Shown here piece after piece: positions 1,662 through 7,328 of a stretch of 8,250 nt of DNA. Made by a program: the position numbers and the translations under genes. The notes beneath the pieces are model-generated. The model had not been told where the DNA came from. It saw only the letters and a list, made by a program, of their open reading frames with translations, and made no database searches. Positions within the stretch are counted from its first letter, which is position 1. Each line of letters opens with the position of its first letter. Origin of the DNA: Phycisphaerales bacterium (GTDB taxonomy: Bacteria > Planctomycetota > Phycisphaerae > Tepidisphaerales > Tepidisphaeraceae); assembly GCA_003153655.1 (NCBI GenBank), contig PMAK01000179.1, forward strand, positions 1 through 8,250. Direction: 5' to 3'.

Positions 1662-1676
1662 AATCAAATACATATT

Positions 1677-1760
1677 GCCACAGATGAAAAGACAGATGCA
1701 CACAGATAAGACAGATTTCAACCCGTCTTTATCTGTGTGCATCTGATTTTCATCTGTGGC
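1677..1760. repeat. 84-bp palindromic repeat, copy 1, between convergent genes
   Basis: Arms of 36 bases (1677-1712 and 1725-1760) are inverted copies with only a compensating one-base offset, around a 12-base loop. Each arm carries GCCACAGATGAAAA followed by CAGATGCACACAGATAA. The right end shares its last base with the TAG stop of the minus-strand CysO-like gene, and the left end is 15 bases after the melA stop. A copy with the same arms lies at 3585-3677. The RNA would fold strongly from either strand, so it could end transcription from both sides, but a mobile palindromic repeat (REP or MITE-like) is equally possible. No transposase is present. Confidence 0.85.
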
Positions 1761-2044
1761 TAAAAATCTTTTCCACCCGCAATCGCCGGAATAATACTAA
1801 GCTCATCCCCAGCCTTCACCGGCGTCTCCAAATTCTTCAAAAACCGAATGTCCTCATCATTCAAATAAACATTCACAAACCGATTCAGCTGGTTCGGCCC
1901 CTTAAACAACCGCGTCTCAATCCCGCTGGCCTTGTCTTTCAACCCATTCAAAACCTCACCAACAGTGGTGCCGGCGACCTCAACGACATCCGCGCCCTGG
2001 GTGTAATTTCGCAGCGGCGATGGGATTCTAACTTTAATACTCAT
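1760..2044 (-). CDS. CysO/MoaD/ThiS-family sulfur-carrier protein with Lys-Asp-Phe after the GG
   Basis: This is a 94-aa ubiquitin-fold sulfur carrier. In this family the C-terminal Gly-Gly is adenylated by a ThiF/MoeB-type enzyme and converted to a thiocarboxylate that donates sulfur to a partner. The sequence resembles mycobacterial CysO: the segment RFVNVYLNDEDIRFL (about 55-69) and the ending SIIPAIAGG (83-91) are typical. Unlike CysO, GG is not terminal; residues 92-94 are KDF before a TAG stop. A protease would have to remove these, as JAMM-type proteases do for some other carriers such as QbsE. No such protease and no activating enzyme lie in the window. The ATG is 7 bases after the stop of the threonine-synthase-like gene with no strong Shine-Dalgarno, so translation is probably coupled. 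The gene would share the SAM-riboswitch transcript. MoaD itself (molybdopterin) is less likely given the neighbours. Confidence 0.85.
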   Translation of the reverse strand: MSIKVRIPSPLRNYTQGADVVEVAGTTVGEVLNGLKDKASGIETRLFKGPNQLNRFVNVYLNDEDIRFLKNLETPVKAGDELSIIPAIAGGKDF

Positions 2045-2051
2045 GGCTGCA

Positions 2052-3344
2052 TCATATCACGGAAACAGGTTTTCGGGAGGCGCGGTCCGCCGCCTTGGCT
2101 TCGGATAAATTCTGCGAACCCTGCCGCGCCAATAATTCATCAAATTCCGAAATCTTCGCCTCAATCGCTTCCGGCTGCACCAGATCGTTCTGCACCGCCT
2201 CCAGCGTCTTCAGCCCGTTCCCGGTGATGCTGACCACGATCGACTCATTCTTCGGAATCCGCCCCTGCTGAATCAGCTTCATCGCCACCGCCAGCGTCGT
2301 TCCACCCGCCGGCTCCGTCCAAATCCCCTCGGTGCGGGCAAGTAACTTGATCGCCGCCACAATCTCCGGATCAGTCGCGCTCTCGCCCCACCCGCCCGAA
2401 TCCTTCACCGCATGCCATACATAATATCCATCCGCCGGATTCCCGATCGCAATGCTCTTCGCAATCGTATTCGGCTTCTGTGGCTCGATAATGTCGATCC
2501 CCTTATGAATCGCCTTCACCACCGGATTACACCCAGCCGCCTGCGCCGAATAAATCTTCGGCCCATTGTCCTCCACCAACCCAAGCTCAATAAACTCCCG
2601 ATAAGCCTTGTAAATCTTCGGCAAAATCGTCCCGCCCGCCGTCGGCACAACCGTATGCTGCGGCAACCGCCACCCAAACTGCTCCGCAATCTCAAACCCG
2701 TACGTCTTCGCCCCCTCCGTGTAATACGGCCGCAGATTCACATTCACAATCGCCCACCCATACTTATCCGCGATCTCCGTGCAAAGCCGATTCACATCAT
2801 CATACGTCCCGCGAATCCGCACCATCGTCGGCCCAAAAATCAGACTGCCAAGGACTTTCCCCTGCTCCAGATCATGCGGAATCATGACGTAACATCGCAA
2901 CCCCGCCATCGCCGCATGCGCAGCCGTACTGTTAGCCAGATTTCCCGTGCTAGCGCACCCAACGGTATCAAACCCAAATTCAATCGCCTTGGAAATAGCG
3001 ACCGACACCACACGCTCTTTGTACGAATACGTCGGATAGTTGCACGAATCATCCTTGATCCAGAGATCCGAACACCCCAGTTCCTTCCCCAGCCGCACCG
3101 CTTTCCGAAACGGCGTAAACCCGGAAAAAAATCCCGTCTTCGGCTCCGCAACCGGCAAGAAATCCTTATATCGCCAAAGACTCTTAGGCCCAGCCGCGAT
3201 CGATTCACGCGTAACCTTCCCCTTCATCGCGGCATAGTCATACTCCACCTCGTAAGGCCCAAAACAAGCCTGACAAACATGGACCGGACTCACCGGCACG
3301 CGATGACCGCACTCTTTACACTTAAGACCGATTACATAGCTCAT
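2052..3344 (-). CDS. threonine-synthase-like PLP enzyme, probably a sulfur amino acid synthase
   Basis: This is a fold-type II PLP enzyme of 430 aa from the ATG at 3344, which has an AGAAGAGG Shine-Dalgarno 8 bases upstream; an upstream ATG at 3383 falls inside the riboswitch platform and is rejected. An N-terminal zinc ribbon has Cys9/Cys12 and Cys24/Cys27. The PLP Schiff-base lysine is probably Lys109 in YPTYSYKERV, the phosphate loop is STGNLANS (132-139), and TGNGLKT (374-380) matches the TGxGLK of threonine synthase. Canonical threonine synthase turns O-phosphohomoserine into threonine and has NPTGSFKDR around the lysine; the form here is clearly different. A SAM-I riboswitch upstream and a CysO-like sulfur carrier 7 bases downstream argue for a role in homocysteine, methionine or cysteine formation, by analogy with CysM using CysO thiocarboxylate. 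That function is inference. Automatic annotation would call it threonine synthase (thrC), which stays possible. The last 30 or so residues are low-complexity and charged. Confidence 0.85.
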   Translation of the reverse strand: MSYVIGLKCKECGHRVPVSPVHVCQACFGPYEVEYDYAAMKGKVTRESIAAGPKSLWRYKDFLPVAEPKTGFFSGFTPFRKAVRLGKELGCSDLWIKDDSCNYPTYSYKERVVSVAISKAIEFGFDTVGCASTGNLANSTAAHAAMAGLRCYVMIPHDLEQGKVLGSLIFGPTMVRIRGTYDDVNRLCTEIADKYGWAIVNVNLRPYYTEGAKTYGFEIAEQFGWRLPQHTVVPTAGGTILPKIYKAYREFIELGLVEDNGPKIYSAQAAGCNPVVKAIHKGIDIIEPQKPNTIAKSIAIGNPADGYYVWHAVKDSGGWGESATDPEIVAAIKLLARTEGIWTEPAGGTTLAVAMKLIQQGRIPKNESIVVSITGNGLKTLEAVQNDLVQPEAIEAKISEFDELLARQGSQNLSEAKAADRASRKPVSVI

Positions 3345-3352
3345 GGAATAAT

Positions 3353-3398
3353 CCTCTTCTAAGAACAAGAAGAGGCGCGGCAAGGCGGGCTTCTTCTT
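3353..3398 (-). promoter_or_regulatory. riboswitch expression platform that can hide the Shine-Dalgarno
   Basis: Read on the minus strand, CCTCTTCT (3375-3368) is perfectly complementary to AGAAGAGG (3360-3353), the Shine-Dalgarno of the threonine-synthase-like gene, across a 7-base loop. The competing partner is the 3' side of riboswitch stem P1: AAGAAGA (3398-3392) can instead pair with TCTTCTT (3373-3367). With SAM bound, P1 holds the first segment and the Shine-Dalgarno hairpin can form (off). Without SAM, the P1 strand is free to take the anti-Shine-Dalgarno segment and translation opens (on). No U-run terminator is seen, so control looks translational. Confidence 0.7.
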
Positions 3399-3505
3399 AT
3401 CTGTCCCGGCAAAACCGGGCGGGAGTTAGCACCGTCTTAAGGCAAATACCCAAAACGGTTGCTGTGGCTTCATCGGGCCCTACCCTCAGCCACTCTCGAT
3501 AAGAA
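3394..3505 (-). promoter_or_regulatory. SAM-I (S-box) riboswitch aptamer
   Basis: The minus strand carries all conserved S-box parts in order. P1 is TTCTTATC (3505-3498) pairing perfectly with GATAAGAA (3401-3394). P2 is GTGGC (3493-3489) with GCCAC (3468-3464), enclosing the kink-turn and GAGGGTAGGGCCCGATGAA. The GCAACC segment follows. P3 is ACCGT (3459-3455) with ACGGT (3435-3431). The conserved GGTGCTAA is at 3433-3426, followed by CTCC. P4 is CCCGG (3419-3415) with CCGGG (3409-3405) around a TTTTG loop. S-box RNAs bind S-adenosylmethionine and shut down methionine and sulfur genes. The leader begins just downstream of a good promoter and ends at the Shine-Dalgarno hairpin of the threonine-synthase-like gene. 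Confidence 0.95.
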
Positions 3506-3526
3506 TCTATTCAATTGTCAGCCAGG

Positions 3527-3555
3527 ATTATTGATTACCCCCCGGAAACTGTCAA
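3527..3555 (-). promoter_or_regulatory. sigma70-type promoter of the riboswitch operon
   Basis: On the minus strand a perfect -35 TTGACA (3555-3550) is followed after exactly 17 bases by AATAAT (3532-3527), one mismatch from consensus. Transcription would start near 3520, about 15 bases before the riboswitch, which fits a complete aptamer in the transcript. Confidence 0.8.
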
Positions 3556-3584: not shown

Positions 3585-3677
3585 TTTTGCCACAGATATA
3601 AATCAGATGCACACAGATAAAGGCAAATCTCAATTGCATTTACATCTGTGTGCATCTGATTTTCATCTGTGGCAAAA
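3585..3677. repeat. 93-bp palindromic repeat, copy 2, behind the uracil-DNA glycosylase gene
   Basis: The outer arms TTTTGCCACAGAT and ATCTGTGGCAAAA are perfect inverted copies, continuing inward as AAATCAGATGCACACAGAT against its complement with two interior mismatches. The centre, near 3631, is less well paired than in copy 1. The outer 30 or so bases of each arm are nearly the same as in 1677-1760. It starts 4 bases after the TAA stop of the glycosylase gene and about 30 bases upstream of the -35 of the riboswitch operon, so it could insulate the two. Confidence 0.85.
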
Positions 3678-3681
3678 ACTC

Positions 3682-4371
3682 TTATTTCCAAGCCCGCCGA
3701 AGCACCGCATCAAACATCTCCATCGTCAATTTCCCCGTAAACGTATTCTGCTGACTCACATGATAAGACCCAATCAATCGCCGGCGATCATTCAATCGCA
3801 TCTCCGCCCCATGCCCAAACGCCACCTTCCCATCGGCAAAATCACACCCATGCCGCTTCGCTAAAGCCAGAGCCGCATCCCACCCAATCTTCCCCAGCGC
3901 CAATATCACCCGCGCCTCGGAAAGTAAATCCCACTCCCGATCCAAATACTCCGAGCAATTCCCAATCTCCCCAGGCAACGGCTTATTCCCCGGCGGCGCA
4001 CACCGAACCGCCGCACTCACAAAAACCCCTTCCAATCTCAACCCATCATCCCGATGCAAAGAAGTCCCCTGATTCGCCATTCCCATGCGATGCAGCGCCG
4101 CAAAGAGAAAATCCCCGCTCCGATCCCCGGTAAAAACCCGCCCGGTCCGATTCGCCCCATGCGCCGCCGGCGCAAGCCCGACAATCCAAATCCTCGCCCG
4201 CGCATCCCCAAACCCCGGCACGGGCTTCCCCCAATAATCCCAATCCAAATACGCCCGCCGCTTATCCCGCGCCACCGCCTCGCAATAAGCCCGCAATCGC
4301 GCACACCGGACGCACCCAACAACTTCCGCTGACAAAACACGAAGCGAATCTTTACCGCGTGAAGTTGGCAT
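3682..4371 (-). CDS. family 5 uracil-DNA glycosylase (UDGb type)
   Basis: This 229-aa enzyme would remove uracil and some other deaminated bases from DNA at the start of base excision repair. Motif A is GLAPAAHGANRTGR (65-78), the family 5 form, which lacks the Asp or Asn found in other uracil-DNA glycosylases. It is followed by VFTGDRSGDFLF. The second active-site motif is SYHVSQQNTFTGKLT (202-216). Four cysteines, Cys20 and Cys23 (CVRC), Cys124 (RCAPPGNKP) and Cys139 (NCSEYL), fit the 4Fe-4S cluster of family 4/5 enzymes. The motifs match Mycobacterium tuberculosis and Thermus UDGb. The ATG shares one base with the TGA of the upstream release-factor-like gene (TGATG), so the two are translationally coupled. 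A large palindrome follows the stop by 4 bases. Confidence 0.92.
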   Translation of the reverse strand: MPTSRGKDSLRVLSAEVVGCVRCARLRAYCEAVARDKRRAYLDWDYWGKPVPGFGDARARIWIVGLAPAAHGANRTGRVFTGDRSGDFLFAALHRMGMANQGTSLHRDDGLRLEGVFVSAAVRCAPPGNKPLPGEIGNCSEYLDREWDLLSEARVILALGKIGWDAALALAKRHGCDFADGKVAFGHGAEMRLNDRRRLIGSYHVSQQNTFTGKLTMEMFDAVLRRAWK

Positions 4372-4886
4372 CAGTTAAGCGTCCGCAGTCCCATCTTTTT
4401 CCGCTGCCGATTCACCTCAGTCCAGACCATCGCATCCGCGCGAAGAAACCCAACCAGCGGCCCAGTCGTCACGCCAATAATCTTCGCCGCATCCGAGATA
4501 CTCCAACCCACCGAATCCAGCACATCCAGCACCACGCCAACCACCCCCGGATAATCCGCCGATTTGCGCGAAACATCCAACCGCTTCGGATCAGGAAACC
4601 GCGACAAATCCACACCCTCCCGCAGACGAATCGCGATCTGAAGCCGCAGCCGTCCAATCGCCACGTCCCGATTCCGATGCTGCGACCGCGATTCCCCCGC
4701 GATAACCGAAATCCCGCTGGCCCTATGCGTCAATCGCACGGCCGAACTCGTCTTATTCCGCTTCTGCCCCCCAGGCCCCGGCCCGCGAAACGCCTCAAAC
4801 CGGCACCGGGCCAGAAGCTGCTCATCAGTCAGTTGTCGAAAATCGGGCATAGTGGCACGCTGCATCGGACCGTCATAAGATGCCAA
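4371..4886 (-). CDS. GGQ-domain peptide chain release factor-like protein
   Basis: This is a stand-alone catalytic domain of the class I release factor family, related to ArfB (YaeJ), which hydrolyses peptidyl-tRNA on stalled ribosomes. The GGQ motif lies in GPGPGGQKRNKTSSAVRLTH (GGQ at 39-41 from the longest start). It is followed by a basic SRSQHRNRDVAIGRLRLQI stretch (67-85). There is no codon-recognition domain. Instead of a simple basic tail there is a C-terminal segment (about 114-171) with SISDAAKIIGVTTGPLVGFL, which looks like a helix-turn-helix, ending in VNRQRKKMGLRTLN. I recall this layout from planctomycete and verrucomicrobial release-factor-like proteins. Possible starts are ATG 4886 (171 aa), 4865 and 4850 (159 aa); none has a clear Shine-Dalgarno. 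The one at 4850 puts GGQ at 27-29, as in ArfB, and avoids overlap with lpd, so it may be the real one. It is the first gene of a coupled pair with the glycosylase. Confidence 0.85.
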   Translation of the reverse strand: MASYDGPMQRATMPDFRQLTDEQLLARCRFEAFRGPGPGGQKRNKTSSAVRLTHRASGISVIAGESRSQHRNRDVAIGRLRLQIAIRLREGVDLSRFPDPKRLDVSRKSADYPGVVGVVLDVLDSVGWSISDAAKIIGVTTGPLVGFLRADAMVWTEVNRQRKKMGLRTLN

Positions 4887-6298
4887 TGACTATGCCCCAA
4901 AGCAATTTCGACCTCATCGTCATCGGAGCCGGACCCGGCGGATACACCGCCGCCATCCGCGCCGCGCAGCTCGGCCTGAAAGTCGCCTGCGTCGAACGAG
5001 AATTCCTCGGCGGAACCTGTCTCAACATCGGCTGCATCCCCTCCAAAGCCCTCCTCGATACCTCCTACCGCTTCTACGACCTCACCCATCACCTCGCCCA
5101 TCGCGGCATCAAAGCCACCAACCCCACAATCGACCTCCCAACAGTCATGACCTTCAAAGACGATGTCGTCAAAAAGATGACAAATGGGGTCGGATACCTT
5201 TTCCGCAAAAATAAAATCGAACACCTCATCGGCCAGGCCCGAATCCTAAGCCCCGGAAATGTCGAAGTAAAAAGCGCCTCCGGCGCCGCCACCTATTCCA
5301 CAAAAAACATCCTCATCGCCACCGGCAGCGCCCCCATCGAGCTCCCCAAAATTCCCTTCGATGGCAAAAATATCCTCTCCTCCACTCAGGGCCTCTCACT
5401 CCCCGAAATCCCCAAACGCCTCATCGTCATCGGCGGCGGATACATCGGCGTCGAACTCGGCTCCGTCTGGAACCGCCTAGGCTCCGAAGTCCTCGTCCTC
5501 GAATTCCTCCCCGGCATCCTCCCCCCATCCGACCGCGAAATGGCCACCGCCCTCCAAAAATCCCTCGAAAAACAAGGCATGAAATTCCGCTTCAACACCT
5601 CCGCCGATACCGCGGTCGCGTCGAATGGCAAAGTCAAAGTCAATTATCACAGCGGAAGCGAAACCGGCCCAGAAACTGGTGTAGAAGAAGCCGACAAGGT
5701 TTTAATCGCCGTAGGCCGCAAACCCGTGACGGACGGCCTGGGCCTCACCGAAGCCGGCGTCCAACAAGATCACCGCGGCTTCGTCATGGTCAGCCCCCAC
5801 TACGCCACAAGAGTCCCCGGCATCTACGCCATCGGCGACGTCATCGGCGGCGCAATGCTAGCCCACAAAGCCGAAGAGGAAGGCGTCGCCGCCGTCGAAA
5901 TCATGGCCGGCAAAGCAGGCCACGTAAATTACAAAGCCTGCCCCGCGGTCGTCTACACACACCCCGAACTGGCACAGGTCGGAATGACCGAAGAAGAAGC
6001 CGCCGCCAGAGGCCCGATCAAGATCGGCAAATTCCCCTTCACAGCCAACGGCCGCGCCCGCGGCATGGACGACGTCGAAGGCTTCGTAAAAGTAATCGGC
6101 GACGCCAAAACCGACCGCCTGCTCGGCGTCCACGTCTTAGGCGCCGACGCCAGCACCATGATCGCCGAAGCCGCAATGGCCATAGAATTCGCCGCCAGCG
6201 TCGAGGACATAGGCCGCGCCTTCCACGCCCACCCCACGCTCCCCGAAGCCATGCGTGAAGCGGCCCTAGCCGCGAATCACCTGGCCCGCCAGATGTAA
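4880..6298 (+). CDS. lpdA: dihydrolipoyl dehydrogenase (E3)
   Basis: This is the FAD enzyme that reoxidises dihydrolipoamide with NAD+ in the pyruvate and 2-oxoglutarate dehydrogenase complexes and the glycine cleavage system. It is 472 aa, the usual length. In order: an FAD-binding GAGPGG (16-21), the redox disulfide Cys47/Cys52 in GGTCLNIGCIPSK, an NAD-binding GGGYIG (185-190), the second FAD contact AIGD (317-320), and the dimer-domain catalytic pair His451/Glu456 in HAHPTLPEA. All key residues are present. ATGs at 4880, 4886 and 4892 are in frame and none has a strong Shine-Dalgarno; any of them puts the FAD strand at the N-terminus. No E1, E2 or glycine-cleavage gene is adjacent. The start region overlaps or abuts that of the divergent release-factor-like gene. 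The last 16 codons or so and the following 27 bases are repeated in degenerate form at 7411-7487. Confidence 0.96.
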   Translation: MPMTMPQSNFDLIVIGAGPGGYTAAIRAAQLGLKVACVEREFLGGTCLNIGCIPSKALLDTSYRFYDLTHHLAHRGIKATNPTIDLPTVMTFKDDVVKKMTNGVGYLFRKNKIEHLIGQARILSPGNVEVKSASGAATYSTKNILIATGSAPIELPKIPFDGKNILSSTQGLSLPEIPKRLIVIGGGYIGVELGSVWNRLGSEVLVLEFLPGILPPSDREMATALQKSLEKQGMKFRFNTSADTAVASNGKVKVNYHSGSETGPETGVEEADKVLIAVGRKPVTDGLGLTEAGVQQDHRGFVMVSPHYATRVPGIYAIGDVIGGAMLAHKAEEEGVAAVEIMAGKAGHVNYKACPAVVYTHPELAQVGMTEEEAAARGPIKIGKFPFTANGRARGMDDVEGFVKVIGDAKTDRLLGVHVLGADASTMIAEAAMAIEFAASVEDIGRAFHAHPTLPEAMREAALAANHLARQM

Positions 6299-6344: not shown

Positions 6345-7328
6345 TCAACCCAGGCGCCAACTCCCGCGCCGCCCCAAAAGAAATATGCTCCCGCATAAAA
6401 CGAGCGATTCAAGAGCGCCAGGCTCGGGAACCTCGACCGCGATGTTGAGGTTTACCCAAGCCAAACCCGTGATTAAATTGGCATTTACAATTGTCCCATC
6501 AGCGGTGTACTCAGCAATGTTTCCCTGCTGGGTTGCAGCGAAAAGGTCATCGCCTCCGGATACTATATCCAGCGTCGAGTTCAAACCTGGAAGTAGCGAT
6601 GAAGTCACCAATGTCCCGGATGTCGTGAATTCCGCGATATTTTGAGTGTTAAAATCTGTTGTGAACAAATCATTACCTATCTGCGCAAGGCCAAAATAAG
6701 CACCAAAACCGCCCGTAATGAAATTGGAATTTGAAGTTCCTCCTGAAATTGAGAATTGAGCGATTAAGGGCAGCTGCCCATTTATTGGCGGAAGAACTAT
6801 TGCCGGGTCACTTTCCACGAACACGTTATCGCCACTCACCGTCATGAATTGGGGTTCCGGAAATGCAACGCCGAGCGAGGAATTCAGCAATACTCCGGCA
6901 GTCGTGAATTCCTCAATGGTATTTGGAGAGGTTCTGCCACGGAGGATACTGAGGAACATTTTATCGCCGGATACCGTTATCGCGGTCGCAGAGCCTGTAT
7001 CGAAGAAGGCATTGTATACGGTTGCATTCACCAATTGGCCACCGGTGGTGTATTCGGAAACTGTGCCATCGTGTAGCACAAAAAGATCATTTCCTTCCAC
7101 GGCGAGCTTCGTGGACACGTCATCTAAATTCGGAATTGTGATAAAGTCGGTGTTAATTGGAGTACCATTCAAGGAGTATTCTTCGATATCATTCCCCTGA
7201 GTCAAAAATATCTGCCCACGCGCGATGCTGGCGAACGAAAGTATAAATAACCCTGCTGCGCAAGATCGGATATCCATTTTCTTCCGGTTAAAAACGCTGA
7301 ACAGATCATCAAAACGCAAGCGTCTCAT
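6345..7328 (-). CDS. PEP-CTERM secreted protein with propeller-like repeats
   Basis: This is a 327-aa exported protein of unknown role. The N-terminus has a basic start, a hydrophobic stretch AAGLFILSFASIARG (24-38) and a likely signal cleavage near residue 38. The body has at least five units of about 45 residues, each with a I-A/E-E-Y/F-T-x-x-G strand (near 48, 90, 138, 190, 230, 270) and a G-D/N-D-L/M-F-V strand (near 79, 121, 166, 219, 260), as in beta-propellers. The C-terminus is VPEP (300-303), a hydrophobic helix (about 306-318) and Arg-Arg at 320-321, the PEP-CTERM sorting signal that exosortase and its partner process for surface display. The ATG at 7328 has AAAGG 5 bases upstream; the ATG at 7277 would give a more usual signal peptide. 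The gene is visibly richer in A/T than its neighbours and is bracketed by copies of the lpd 3' end, so it may be a later arrival. No exosortase is in the window. Confidence 0.85.
   Translation of the reverse strand: MRRLRFDDLFSVFNRKKMDIRSCAAGLFILSFASIARGQIFLTQGNDIEEYSLNGTPINTDFITIPNLDDVSTKLAVEGNDLFVLHDGTVSEYTTGGQLVNATVYNAFFDTGSATAITVSGDKMFLSILRGRTSPNTIEEFTTAGVLLNSSLGVAFPEPQFMTVSGDNVFVESDPAIVLPPINGQLPLIAQFSISGGTSNSNFITGGFGAYFGLAQIGNDLFTTDFNTQNIAEFTTSGTLVTSSLLPGLNSTLDIVSGGDDLFAATQQGNIAEYTADGTIVNANLITGLAWVNLNIAVEVPEPGALESLVLCGSIFLLGRRGSWRLG

What the first reader, a model, noticed from the sequence alone, without database searches (positions are those of the whole stretch)
1760..3555. SAM riboswitch drives a threonine-synthase-like enzyme plus a CysO-like sulfur carrier: candidate thiocarboxylate-dependent homocysteine synthase
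Seen: a complete S-box aptamer with promoter in front of a two-gene operon of a fold-II PLP enzyme and a MoaD/CysO-family protein, 7 bases apart. Known: S-box RNAs repress methionine and sulfur assimilation genes; in mycobacteria CysM uses thiocarboxylated CysO and O-phosphoserine to make cysteine; threonine synthase binds O-phosphohomoserine. Inferred: the pair makes homocysteine from O-phosphohomoserine (or another activated homoserine) with sulfur from the carrier. That would join the threonine and methionine branches in one enzyme family. Plain threonine synthase under SAM control would be odd in itself.
Basis: partly seen in the sequence, partly recalled or inferred. Interest (0 to 1): 0.88.

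Follow-up and report, generated by a model that had tools for sequence, protein, structure and literature searches.

The report
SAM-switched homocysteine synthase with sulfur carrier
A planctomycete carries a SAM riboswitch sequence in front of genes for a threonine-synthase-like enzyme and a small ubiquitin-like sulfur carrier, a pair that likely makes homocysteine for methionine by the route reported in Streptomyces in 2024, and the enzyme-carrier gene pair recurs in other bacterial phyla.

Summary
In detail: a complete S-box (RF00162, 87.7 bits) with a promoter-like site precedes a 430-aa fold-II PLP enzyme and, 7 bases on, a 94-aa MoaD/CysO-like carrier. I file the window pair as a planctomycete member of that kind. 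An actinomycete locus with the same order (enzyme 51% identical) joins it in one clade apart from canonical ThrC. Of 13 close genomes with the S-box enzyme, own included, 13 also hold canonical thrC, 11 lack metX, 13 lack metA and 9 lack any strong PF01053 enzyme. Of 80 loci, 71 have the carrier, 66 the S-box, 51 an E1-like gene. The S-box is mainly planctomycete: 62 of 66 planctomycete-titled loci, 2 of 12 with other titles. The own genome has E1, CysM and JAB-rhodanese genes on another contig. Against: a cyanobacterial homologue was reported to make mainly threonine, and 116 of 199 Planctomycetota lack MetM, MetX and MetA alike. No activity was measured.

The parts
3527..3555 (-). sigma-70-type promoter-like site TTGACA-17-AATAAT, 21 bases ahead of the aptamer
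   Evidence: 11 of 12 matches; 3 sites found in the region against 1.7 expected, so the match alone is weak; its position supports it
3394..3505 (-). SAM riboswitch aptamer (S-box, RF00162)
   Evidence: 87.7 bits, E 2.4e-20
3354..3374 (-). predicted hairpin (7 pairs) whose 3' arm takes in 3 of the 4 bases of the Shine-Dalgarno-like GAGG (3356-3353) when aptamer helix P1 is formed
   Evidence: minimum-energy fold -64.2 kcal/mol; prediction only
3364..3401 (-). predicted alternative helix (3401-3392 with 3373-3364, 10 pairs) that frees the Shine-Dalgarno when the 5' strand of P1 is unavailable
   Evidence: -60.7 kcal/mol; prediction only
2052..3344 (-). MetM-like threonine-synthase homologue, 430 aa, fold-II PLP enzyme with N-terminal CxxC..CxxC segment; predicted homocysteine synthase
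1760..2044 (-). MetO/CysO-like sulfur carrier, 94 aa, Gly-Gly followed by Lys-Asp-Phe

Best explanation
The operon carries an S-box, a MetM-like enzyme gene and a MetO/CysO-like carrier gene, and likely makes homocysteine from O-phosphohomoserine with sulfur delivered by the carrier, under repression by SAM. Predicted steps: the E1-like enzyme with its rhodanese partner loads sulfur on the carrier C-terminus (genes shown elsewhere in the genome, function inferred). The enzyme's PLP eliminates phosphate from O-phosphohomoserine, the same first half-reaction as threonine synthase; the sulfur nucleophile then adds at the gamma carbon instead of water at the beta carbon (inferred). The JAB protease, encoded in the E1-CysM cluster, would trim the carrier tail and/or release the amino acid (inferred from the CysO system, recalled). 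High SAM would form aptamer helix P1 and let a hairpin cover the ribosome-binding site (predicted fold).
For: S-box over the family cut-off lies directly upstream of this enzyme in 13 of 26 genomes (own plus 12 relatives) and upstream of it in 66 of 80 loci from a species-level scan. Carrier near the enzyme in 71 of 80 loci, E1-like gene within 2.6 kb downstream in 51 of 80; S-box, carrier and E1 together in 44 of 80. The 13 genomes each also have a canonical thrC (13 of 13). MetX: 2 of 13 enzyme-bearing genomes against 10 of 13 others (Fisher p 0.005); strong PF01053: 4 of 13 against 13 of 13 (p 0.0005). MetA 0 of 26. HcyBio 1 of 58. In G016, in which this enzyme was not found, the S-box sits about 145 bases ahead of the metX match instead. 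Nonomuraea gerenzanensis: S-box 68.7 bits, enzyme 51% identical over 90% of the query, carrier 24 bases after the enzyme's stop codon; one clade with the window enzyme, support 100/100. Prior report of MetM/metO with SAM riboswitch in S. albulus (PMC12172450). Own-genome E1, CysM, JAB-rhodanese cluster.
Against: No activity was measured. The Microcystis homologue, 51.6% identical to MetM and beside a carrier gene, was reported to act mainly as threonine synthase and deaminase, with no rise in methionine (PMC12172450), so family membership does not prove homocysteine synthesis. In the phylum sample 116 of 199 genomes lack MetM, MetX and MetA, so absence of the usual genes is common and weak by itself there. 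26 of 33 MetM-bearing phylum genomes keep a PF01053 enzyme, and only 16 of 33 have an S-box within 0.5 kb upstream (stricter filters). Outside planctomycete titles only 2 of 12 named loci have the S-box. The own genome keeps one cystathionine-gamma-synthase/lyase-like gene and is 88% complete. G006 and G013 among the 13, and G134 and G208 among the 33, have both routes. The carrier ends in GG-KDF, not GG. In 5 of the 11 close genomes where the carrier was found it lies 0.8-1.1 kb away, with other sequence between. No carrier was found near the enzyme in 9 of 80 loci; 4 of those end within 25 bases of the enzyme and one more within 1 kb.
Confidence: 0.82

Rival explanations
1. The enzyme makes homocysteine, but with free sulfide; the carrier is only a loosely linked helper, or serves CysM instead.
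For: In 2 of the 13 close genomes no carrier was found in the fetched stretch, and in 5 of the other 11 it lies 0.8-1.1 kb off. The E1 lies directly beside a cysteine-synthase-family gene in 7 of the 12 close-family stretches read, which were chosen because of E1 or PALP hits.
Against: Carrier near the enzyme in 71 of 80 loci with eight different higher-rank names in the record titles, and E1 in the same run of genes in 51 of 80.
Confidence: 0.1
2. It is a second threonine synthase (perhaps bifunctional), and SAM control balances the threonine and methionine branches.
For: TIGR00260 thrC over cut-off, 257.7 bits; best solved relatives are threonine synthases; a cyanobacterial homologue showed threonine synthase activity (PMC12172450).
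Against: A canonical thrC is present in 13 of 13 close genomes with this enzyme. 44 columns that are nearly fixed in both groups differ between 38 members of this clade and 8 canonical ThrC, 15 of them in all 8, including the segment N-S-x-N-P-F/Y-R replaced by N-V-N-L-R-P-Y-Y. Clade split 100/100. A SAM switch and a sulfur carrier would be out of place in plain threonine synthesis (inference).
Confidence: 0.05
3. It is a cysteine synthase that uses the carrier with O-phosphoserine, as mycobacterial CysM does, and SAM controls it as part of sulfur assimilation.
For: The carrier is CysO-like, and S-boxes can control cysteine genes in other bacteria (recalled).
Against: The genome has a CysM-like gene next to E1 and JAB. 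The enzyme is of the threonine synthase family, not of the CysM/CysK family. In close relatives the enzyme alternates with metX and PF01053 genes.
Confidence: 0.03

Closest known systems
MetM/MetO route of Streptomyces albulus (Hasebe et al. 2024, AEM 90:e01247-24; known here only through passages of PMC12172450)
   Same: Threonine-synthase-like enzyme, sulfur-carrier gene metO, upstream SAM riboswitch; reported conversion of O-phosphohomoserine to homocysteine.
   Different: Different phylum. In 51 of 80 related loci (46 of the 51 with planctomycete titles) an E1-like gene is part of the run; in the window's own family the E1 lies elsewhere, often with CysM and JAB. Whether the Streptomyces paper covers any of this is not known, as it is not held.
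CysO-CysM-Mec cysteine route of mycobacteria (recalled)
   Same: Small ubiquitin-like carrier with Gly-Gly near its C-terminus and a fold-II PLP enzyme; E1 and JAB genes present in the genome.
   Different: Enzyme is of the threonine synthase family; a SAM riboswitch sequence precedes it; expected product is homocysteine.
HcyS-dependent MetY route of Wolinella succinogenes (recalled)
   Same: Protein thiocarboxylate as proposed sulfur donor for homocysteine, with a carrier tail that must be trimmed.
   Different: MetY is a fold-I enzyme (PF01053) using acylated homoserine; here the enzyme is fold II and no homoserine acyltransferase was found in the genome.
Canonical threonine synthase ThrC
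   Same: Fold, PLP lysine, expected substrate O-phosphohomoserine.
   Different: 44 columns nearly fixed in each group differ; a separate ThrC exists in the same genome.

Membership tests
MetM/MetO homocysteine route | Threonine-synthase homologue distinct from the genome's ThrC | tested here: met
MetM/MetO homocysteine route | Sulfur-carrier gene next to the enzyme gene | tested here: met
   window: 7 bases apart; carrier near the enzyme in 71 of 80 loci
MetM/MetO homocysteine route | Upstream SAM riboswitch (as stated for S. albulus) | tested here: met
   window; 66 of 80 loci; Nonomuraea
MetM/MetO homocysteine route | Close sequence kinship with S. albulus MetM itself | tested here: inconclusive
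   The MetM sequence was not at hand; an actinomycete locus of the same layout (Nonomuraea, L167) is 51% identical (49% in the full alignment) and in the same clade
MetM/MetO homocysteine route | Makes homocysteine from O-phosphohomoserine; relieves methionine auxotrophy | not testable with these tools
   needs assay or complementation
CysO-type sulfur carrier | Ubiquitin-like fold with C-terminal Gly-Gly | tested here: inconclusive
   GG present but followed by KDF in the window; 58 of 71 linked carriers end at GG
CysO-type sulfur carrier | E1 and JAB protease in the genome | tested here: met
   G000:C63
Threonine synthase (ThrC) | Family model over its cut-off | tested here: met
   TIGR00260 257.7 bits, cut-off 167.1
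Threonine synthase (ThrC) | Residues conserved in canonical ThrC (7 from planctomycete genomes, 1 Lysinibacillus) | tested here: not met
   44 columns differ, 15 of them conserved in all 8 canonical rows
Wolinella-type HcyS/MetY | Fold-I O-acylhomoserine sulfhydrylase | tested here: not met
   enzyme is PF00291, fold II
SAM riboswitch (RF00162) | Full aptamer over gathering score | tested here: met

The most novel reading that the evidence does not exclude
In the window's family (Tepidisphaeraceae) a single ubiquitin-like carrier, made only under SAM control from this operon, is charged by one E1-rhodanese set and serves two enzymes, CysM and the MetM-like synthase, with one JAB protease releasing both products. 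All cysteine and homocysteine sulfur would then pass through one protein thiocarboxylate, and the SAM riboswitch would gate both amino acids at once; in the 9 of 13 genomes without any strong PF01053 enzyme this would be the only route to homocysteine.
Probability: 0.35. Interest if true: 0.68.

Novelty: new member of a known kind. Interest (0 to 1): 0.45.

Why it matters
Source names in the protein collection call these proteins threonine synthase wherever a function is given in the listed rows, so methionine routes are probably misread in many genomes. The loci show the enzyme-carrier pair under eight higher-rank names, with S-box control mainly in Planctomycetota and also in Methylomirabilis, Verrucomicrobiales and an actinomycete, and they point to organisms that seem to depend on this route. 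If the function is right, it would fill an apparent gap in methionine synthesis for part of the Planctomycetota, and it makes the question of carrier-bound against free sulfide directly testable.

Tried and rejected
Threonine synthase as the main role: rejected because a canonical ThrC is present in 13 of 13 close genomes. CysM role: rejected on family. A general ribosome-site switch for the whole family: the window leader folds that way, but of 22 testable relatives only 2 gave the clean pattern (5 more in part, 13 equal, 2 opposite), and 32 of the 48 loci whose start codon my script could place (of 66) have a run of five or more T between aptamer and start, which suggests terminators there; so the claim is kept for the window only. 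A strict either/or swap with metX in the phylum: weakened, since 2 of 33 have both and 116 of 199 have none of MetM, MetX, MetA. A first S-box alignment had 6 of 14 rows on the wrong strand and was redone. Literature: ten searches. PMC12172450 stood first in the listing, but I opened it only; the MetM report was found only through it. Other papers seen: passages of PMC1779556, PMC7311316, PMC12452182 and PMC13257386, none of which showed this route in the passages returned. Chlorohelix, Haladaptatus, Lysinibacillus and Azospirillum records were fetched as outgroups; no carrier gene is listed in the stretches shown.
Full report
Observation. On the minus strand it holds a promoter-like site at 3555-3527, a full S-box at 3505-3394 (87.7 bits), an enzyme gene at 3344-2052 and a carrier gene at 2044-1760, 7 bases apart. 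The neighbours look unrelated: a family-4 glycoside hydrolase on the plus strand downstream and a uracil-DNA-glycosylase-like gene upstream.

The enzyme. It is a PALP, fold-II protein. The AlphaFold2 model from 31 sequences has mean pLDDT 90.0, and its best structural matches are threonine synthases. It scores over the threonine synthase cut-off, yet it is not this genome's ThrC. A canonical thrC lies at G000:C174:2612-3661, and it scores only 115 bits against the model of the window family, which gives 887 bits to the window enzyme. In a tree of 51 proteins, 38 window-type enzymes form one group with support 100/100 and 8 canonical ThrC another with 100/98; the placing of the long-branched outgroups is unsure, as the program warns. 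44 alignment columns, nearly fixed in each group (at least 35 of 38 and 7 of 8), differ between the two; 15 of them hold in all 8 canonical rows, 7 of which come from planctomycete genomes. The PLP-lysine motif reads PSGSFKDNG (7 rows) or PTGSFKDRG (1 row) in the canonical set and P(T/S)xS(F/Y)K(D/E)RV in the window group (PTYSYKERV in the window). N-SVNPFR reads NVNLRPYY. That the latter segment helps to bind the substrate phosphate in ThrC is recalled, not tested.

The carrier. It is a ThiS/MoaD-fold protein, nearest in solved structures to 4n6e_B and 3dwg_C (the latter is mycobacterial CysO, recalled). It ends in IAGG-KDF. Of 71 carriers linked to the enzyme in the locus set, 58 end at GG; the rest have tails or fusions, including an Endomicrobia carrier fused to an E1 (L119). 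A tail would have to be trimmed before thiocarboxylation (inference).

Linkage. A scan of one genome per species gave 167 coding matches, of which the tool kept the best 80 loci. Titles: 66 planctomycete, 2 plain 'bacterium' (L111, L130), 12 others (Acidobacteria, Armatimonadota, Omnitrophica, Endomicrobia, Nitrospirae, Methylomirabilis, Verrucomicrobiales); these are mostly metagenome bins, and one, L109 'Acidobacteria', falls inside the Phycisphaeraceae group of the tree, so it may be mis-binned or transferred. A carrier lies near the enzyme in 71 of 80, in 5 of these 0.6-1.1 kb away. The S-box model finds an aptamer upstream in 66 of 80: 62 of 66 planctomycete titles, 2 of 2 'bacterium', and only 2 of the 12 others (L122, L132). 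An E1-like gene follows within 2.6 kb on the same strand in 51 of 80, and 44 of 80 have S-box, carrier and E1. Of the 9 without a carrier, 4 end within 25 bases of the enzyme and one more within 1 kb; of the 14 without S-box, 2 have no upstream sequence and one has 658 bases. Rfam itself confirmed the S-box in 10 of 10 loci sent, including Methylomirabilis, Verrucomicrobiales and the actinomycete Nonomuraea.

Genome-level test. Among 26 close genomes (own included), the S-box passes the Rfam score in 14. In 13 it lies directly upstream of this enzyme; in the 14th (G016, no such enzyme found) it lies about 145 bases ahead of the metX match. The 13 enzyme-bearing genomes: canonical thrC also present 13 of 13; carrier nearby 11 of 13, in 5 of them 0.8-1.1 kb off (none found for G010 and G015); metX present 2 of 13 against 10 of 13 in the rest, p 0.005; strong PF01053 present 4 of 13 against 13 of 13, p 0.0005; metA 0 of 26. 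HcyBio occurs in 1 of 58 genomes searched, G137. G012 (one contig, 98% complete) has the enzyme and S-box and no metX, metA, strong PF01053 or HcyBio. In a sample of 199 Planctomycetota the enzyme is in 33 (one a contig-end fragment, G154, 316 bits; next best group starts at 278 bits). 16 of the 33 have an S-box within 0.5 kb upstream (the tool used stricter filters). metX at E 1e-50 or better is in 49 with an overlap of 2 (p 0.007), and metA is in 4, none overlapping. 7 of the 33 lack PF01053 at E 1e-40 or better, and one of the 7 (G137) has HcyBio. Against a neat picture, 116 of 199 genomes have none of the three, so other routes or auxotrophy must be common there. Fisher values ignore shared ancestry.

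Own genome. It keeps one PF01053 gene in two frame pieces, most like cystathionine gamma-synthase/lyase, beside a CBS-like gene (partial matches, under the model cut-offs). This looks like a homocysteine-to-cysteine pair, but a role in homocysteine synthesis is not excluded. On contig C63 an E1-like gene, a CysM-like gene and a JAB-rhodanese reading frame follow each other. I read 12 such stretches from the same family, chosen for E1 or PALP hits. E1 beside a CysM-type gene occurs in 6 (G000, G001, G006, G009, G012, G013) and beside another cysteine-synthase-family gene in G005. A JAB motif occurs in 8 of 12 (Pfam was run on 4 of these, G000, G001, G012 and G014, and confirmed all 4). No carrier gene was found in any of the 12. 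This is the basis of the shared-carrier reading; other carriers elsewhere in these genomes were not searched for.

Control. Folded from 3505 to 3326, the leader forms the aptamer helices plus a 7-pair hairpin over the Shine-Dalgarno; with the 5' strand of P1 withheld, the 3' strand of P1 pairs with the hairpin's 5' arm and frees the site. No T-run follows the aptamer in the window. The family as a whole does not share this: many relatives carry T-runs.

What is known. Two phrase searches for the reaction returned no paper. PMC12172450 (mSystems 2025) was in the listing; its passages, read, showed that Hasebe and colleagues (2024) had identified MetM as a homocysteine synthase in Streptomyces, with a SAM riboswitch upstream of metM in S. 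albulus, metO of the sulfur-carrier family, and cyanobacterial homologues. The 2024 paper is not held, and I have not read it. The same passages warn that the Microcystis homologue behaves mostly as threonine synthase/deaminase. A Nonomuraea gerenzanensis record gave an actinomycete locus with the same S-box, enzyme, carrier order and 51% enzyme identity. I therefore file the window as a new member of the MetM/MetO kind. That it works like it (carrier-fed homocysteine synthesis) is strongly suggested; membership by direct comparison with S. albulus MetM was not tested.

Verdict. What is added here, as far as I could see without that paper, is the planctomycete and wider spread, the E1 partner, the alternation with metX in close relatives, and the possible sharing of one carrier with CysM.

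Noticed in passing
window 1666-1771 and 3585-3677: The operon is bracketed by two copies of a palindromic intergenic repeat (core ATCTGTGTGCATCTGATTTTCATCTGTGGC, 95% alike over 40 nt, arms 22-38 nt).
   Followed up: partly
L172 4244-7616 (G000:C63): Own-genome run E1-like, CysM-like, JAB in one reading frame with two rhodanese matches; no carrier gene found there. The frame crosses two N bases.
   Followed up: partly
G016:C54:22712-22834 and G018:C19:306525-306635: S-box ahead of metX in G016 and a below-cut-off S-box ahead of a PF01053 gene in G018: the switch seems to stay with the homocysteine step when the enzyme changes.
   Followed up: partly
phylum sample: 116 of 199 Planctomycetota show none of MetM, MetX, MetA; how they obtain homocysteine is open.
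   Followed up: no
window 2055-3344, residues 10-28: N-terminal CxxC..CxxC segment, possibly a zinc ribbon; Pfam calls it NinF (29.1 bits, cut-off 27.5), likely a false label.
   Followed up: no
L119 (Endomicrobia) and L129 (Acidobacteria): Carrier domain fused to an E1-like protein next to the enzyme (L119), and a carrier-model hit inside a 480-aa E1-like protein besides a separate carrier (L129).
   Followed up: no
L109 (JAJDNS010000116.1): A record titled Acidobacteria carries an enzyme that falls inside the Phycisphaeraceae group of the tree: mis-binning or transfer.
   Followed up: no
window 4371-4886 and 4880-6298: A short GGQ release-factor-domain protein (PrfH/ArfB-like) and a dihydrolipoyl dehydrogenase ORF overlap by 7 bases at their listed starts on opposite strands.
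   Followed up: no
window 6345-7328: 327-aa protein without a family match whose C-terminus (VPEPGALESLVL..LLGRRG) looks like a PEP-CTERM sorting signal (recalled motif).
   Followed up: no
L167 (NZ_LT559118.1): An 11.85 Mb Nonomuraea gerenzanensis record, chromosome-sized, is listed as plasmid I in PLSDB, with only 10 annotated features.
   Followed up: no
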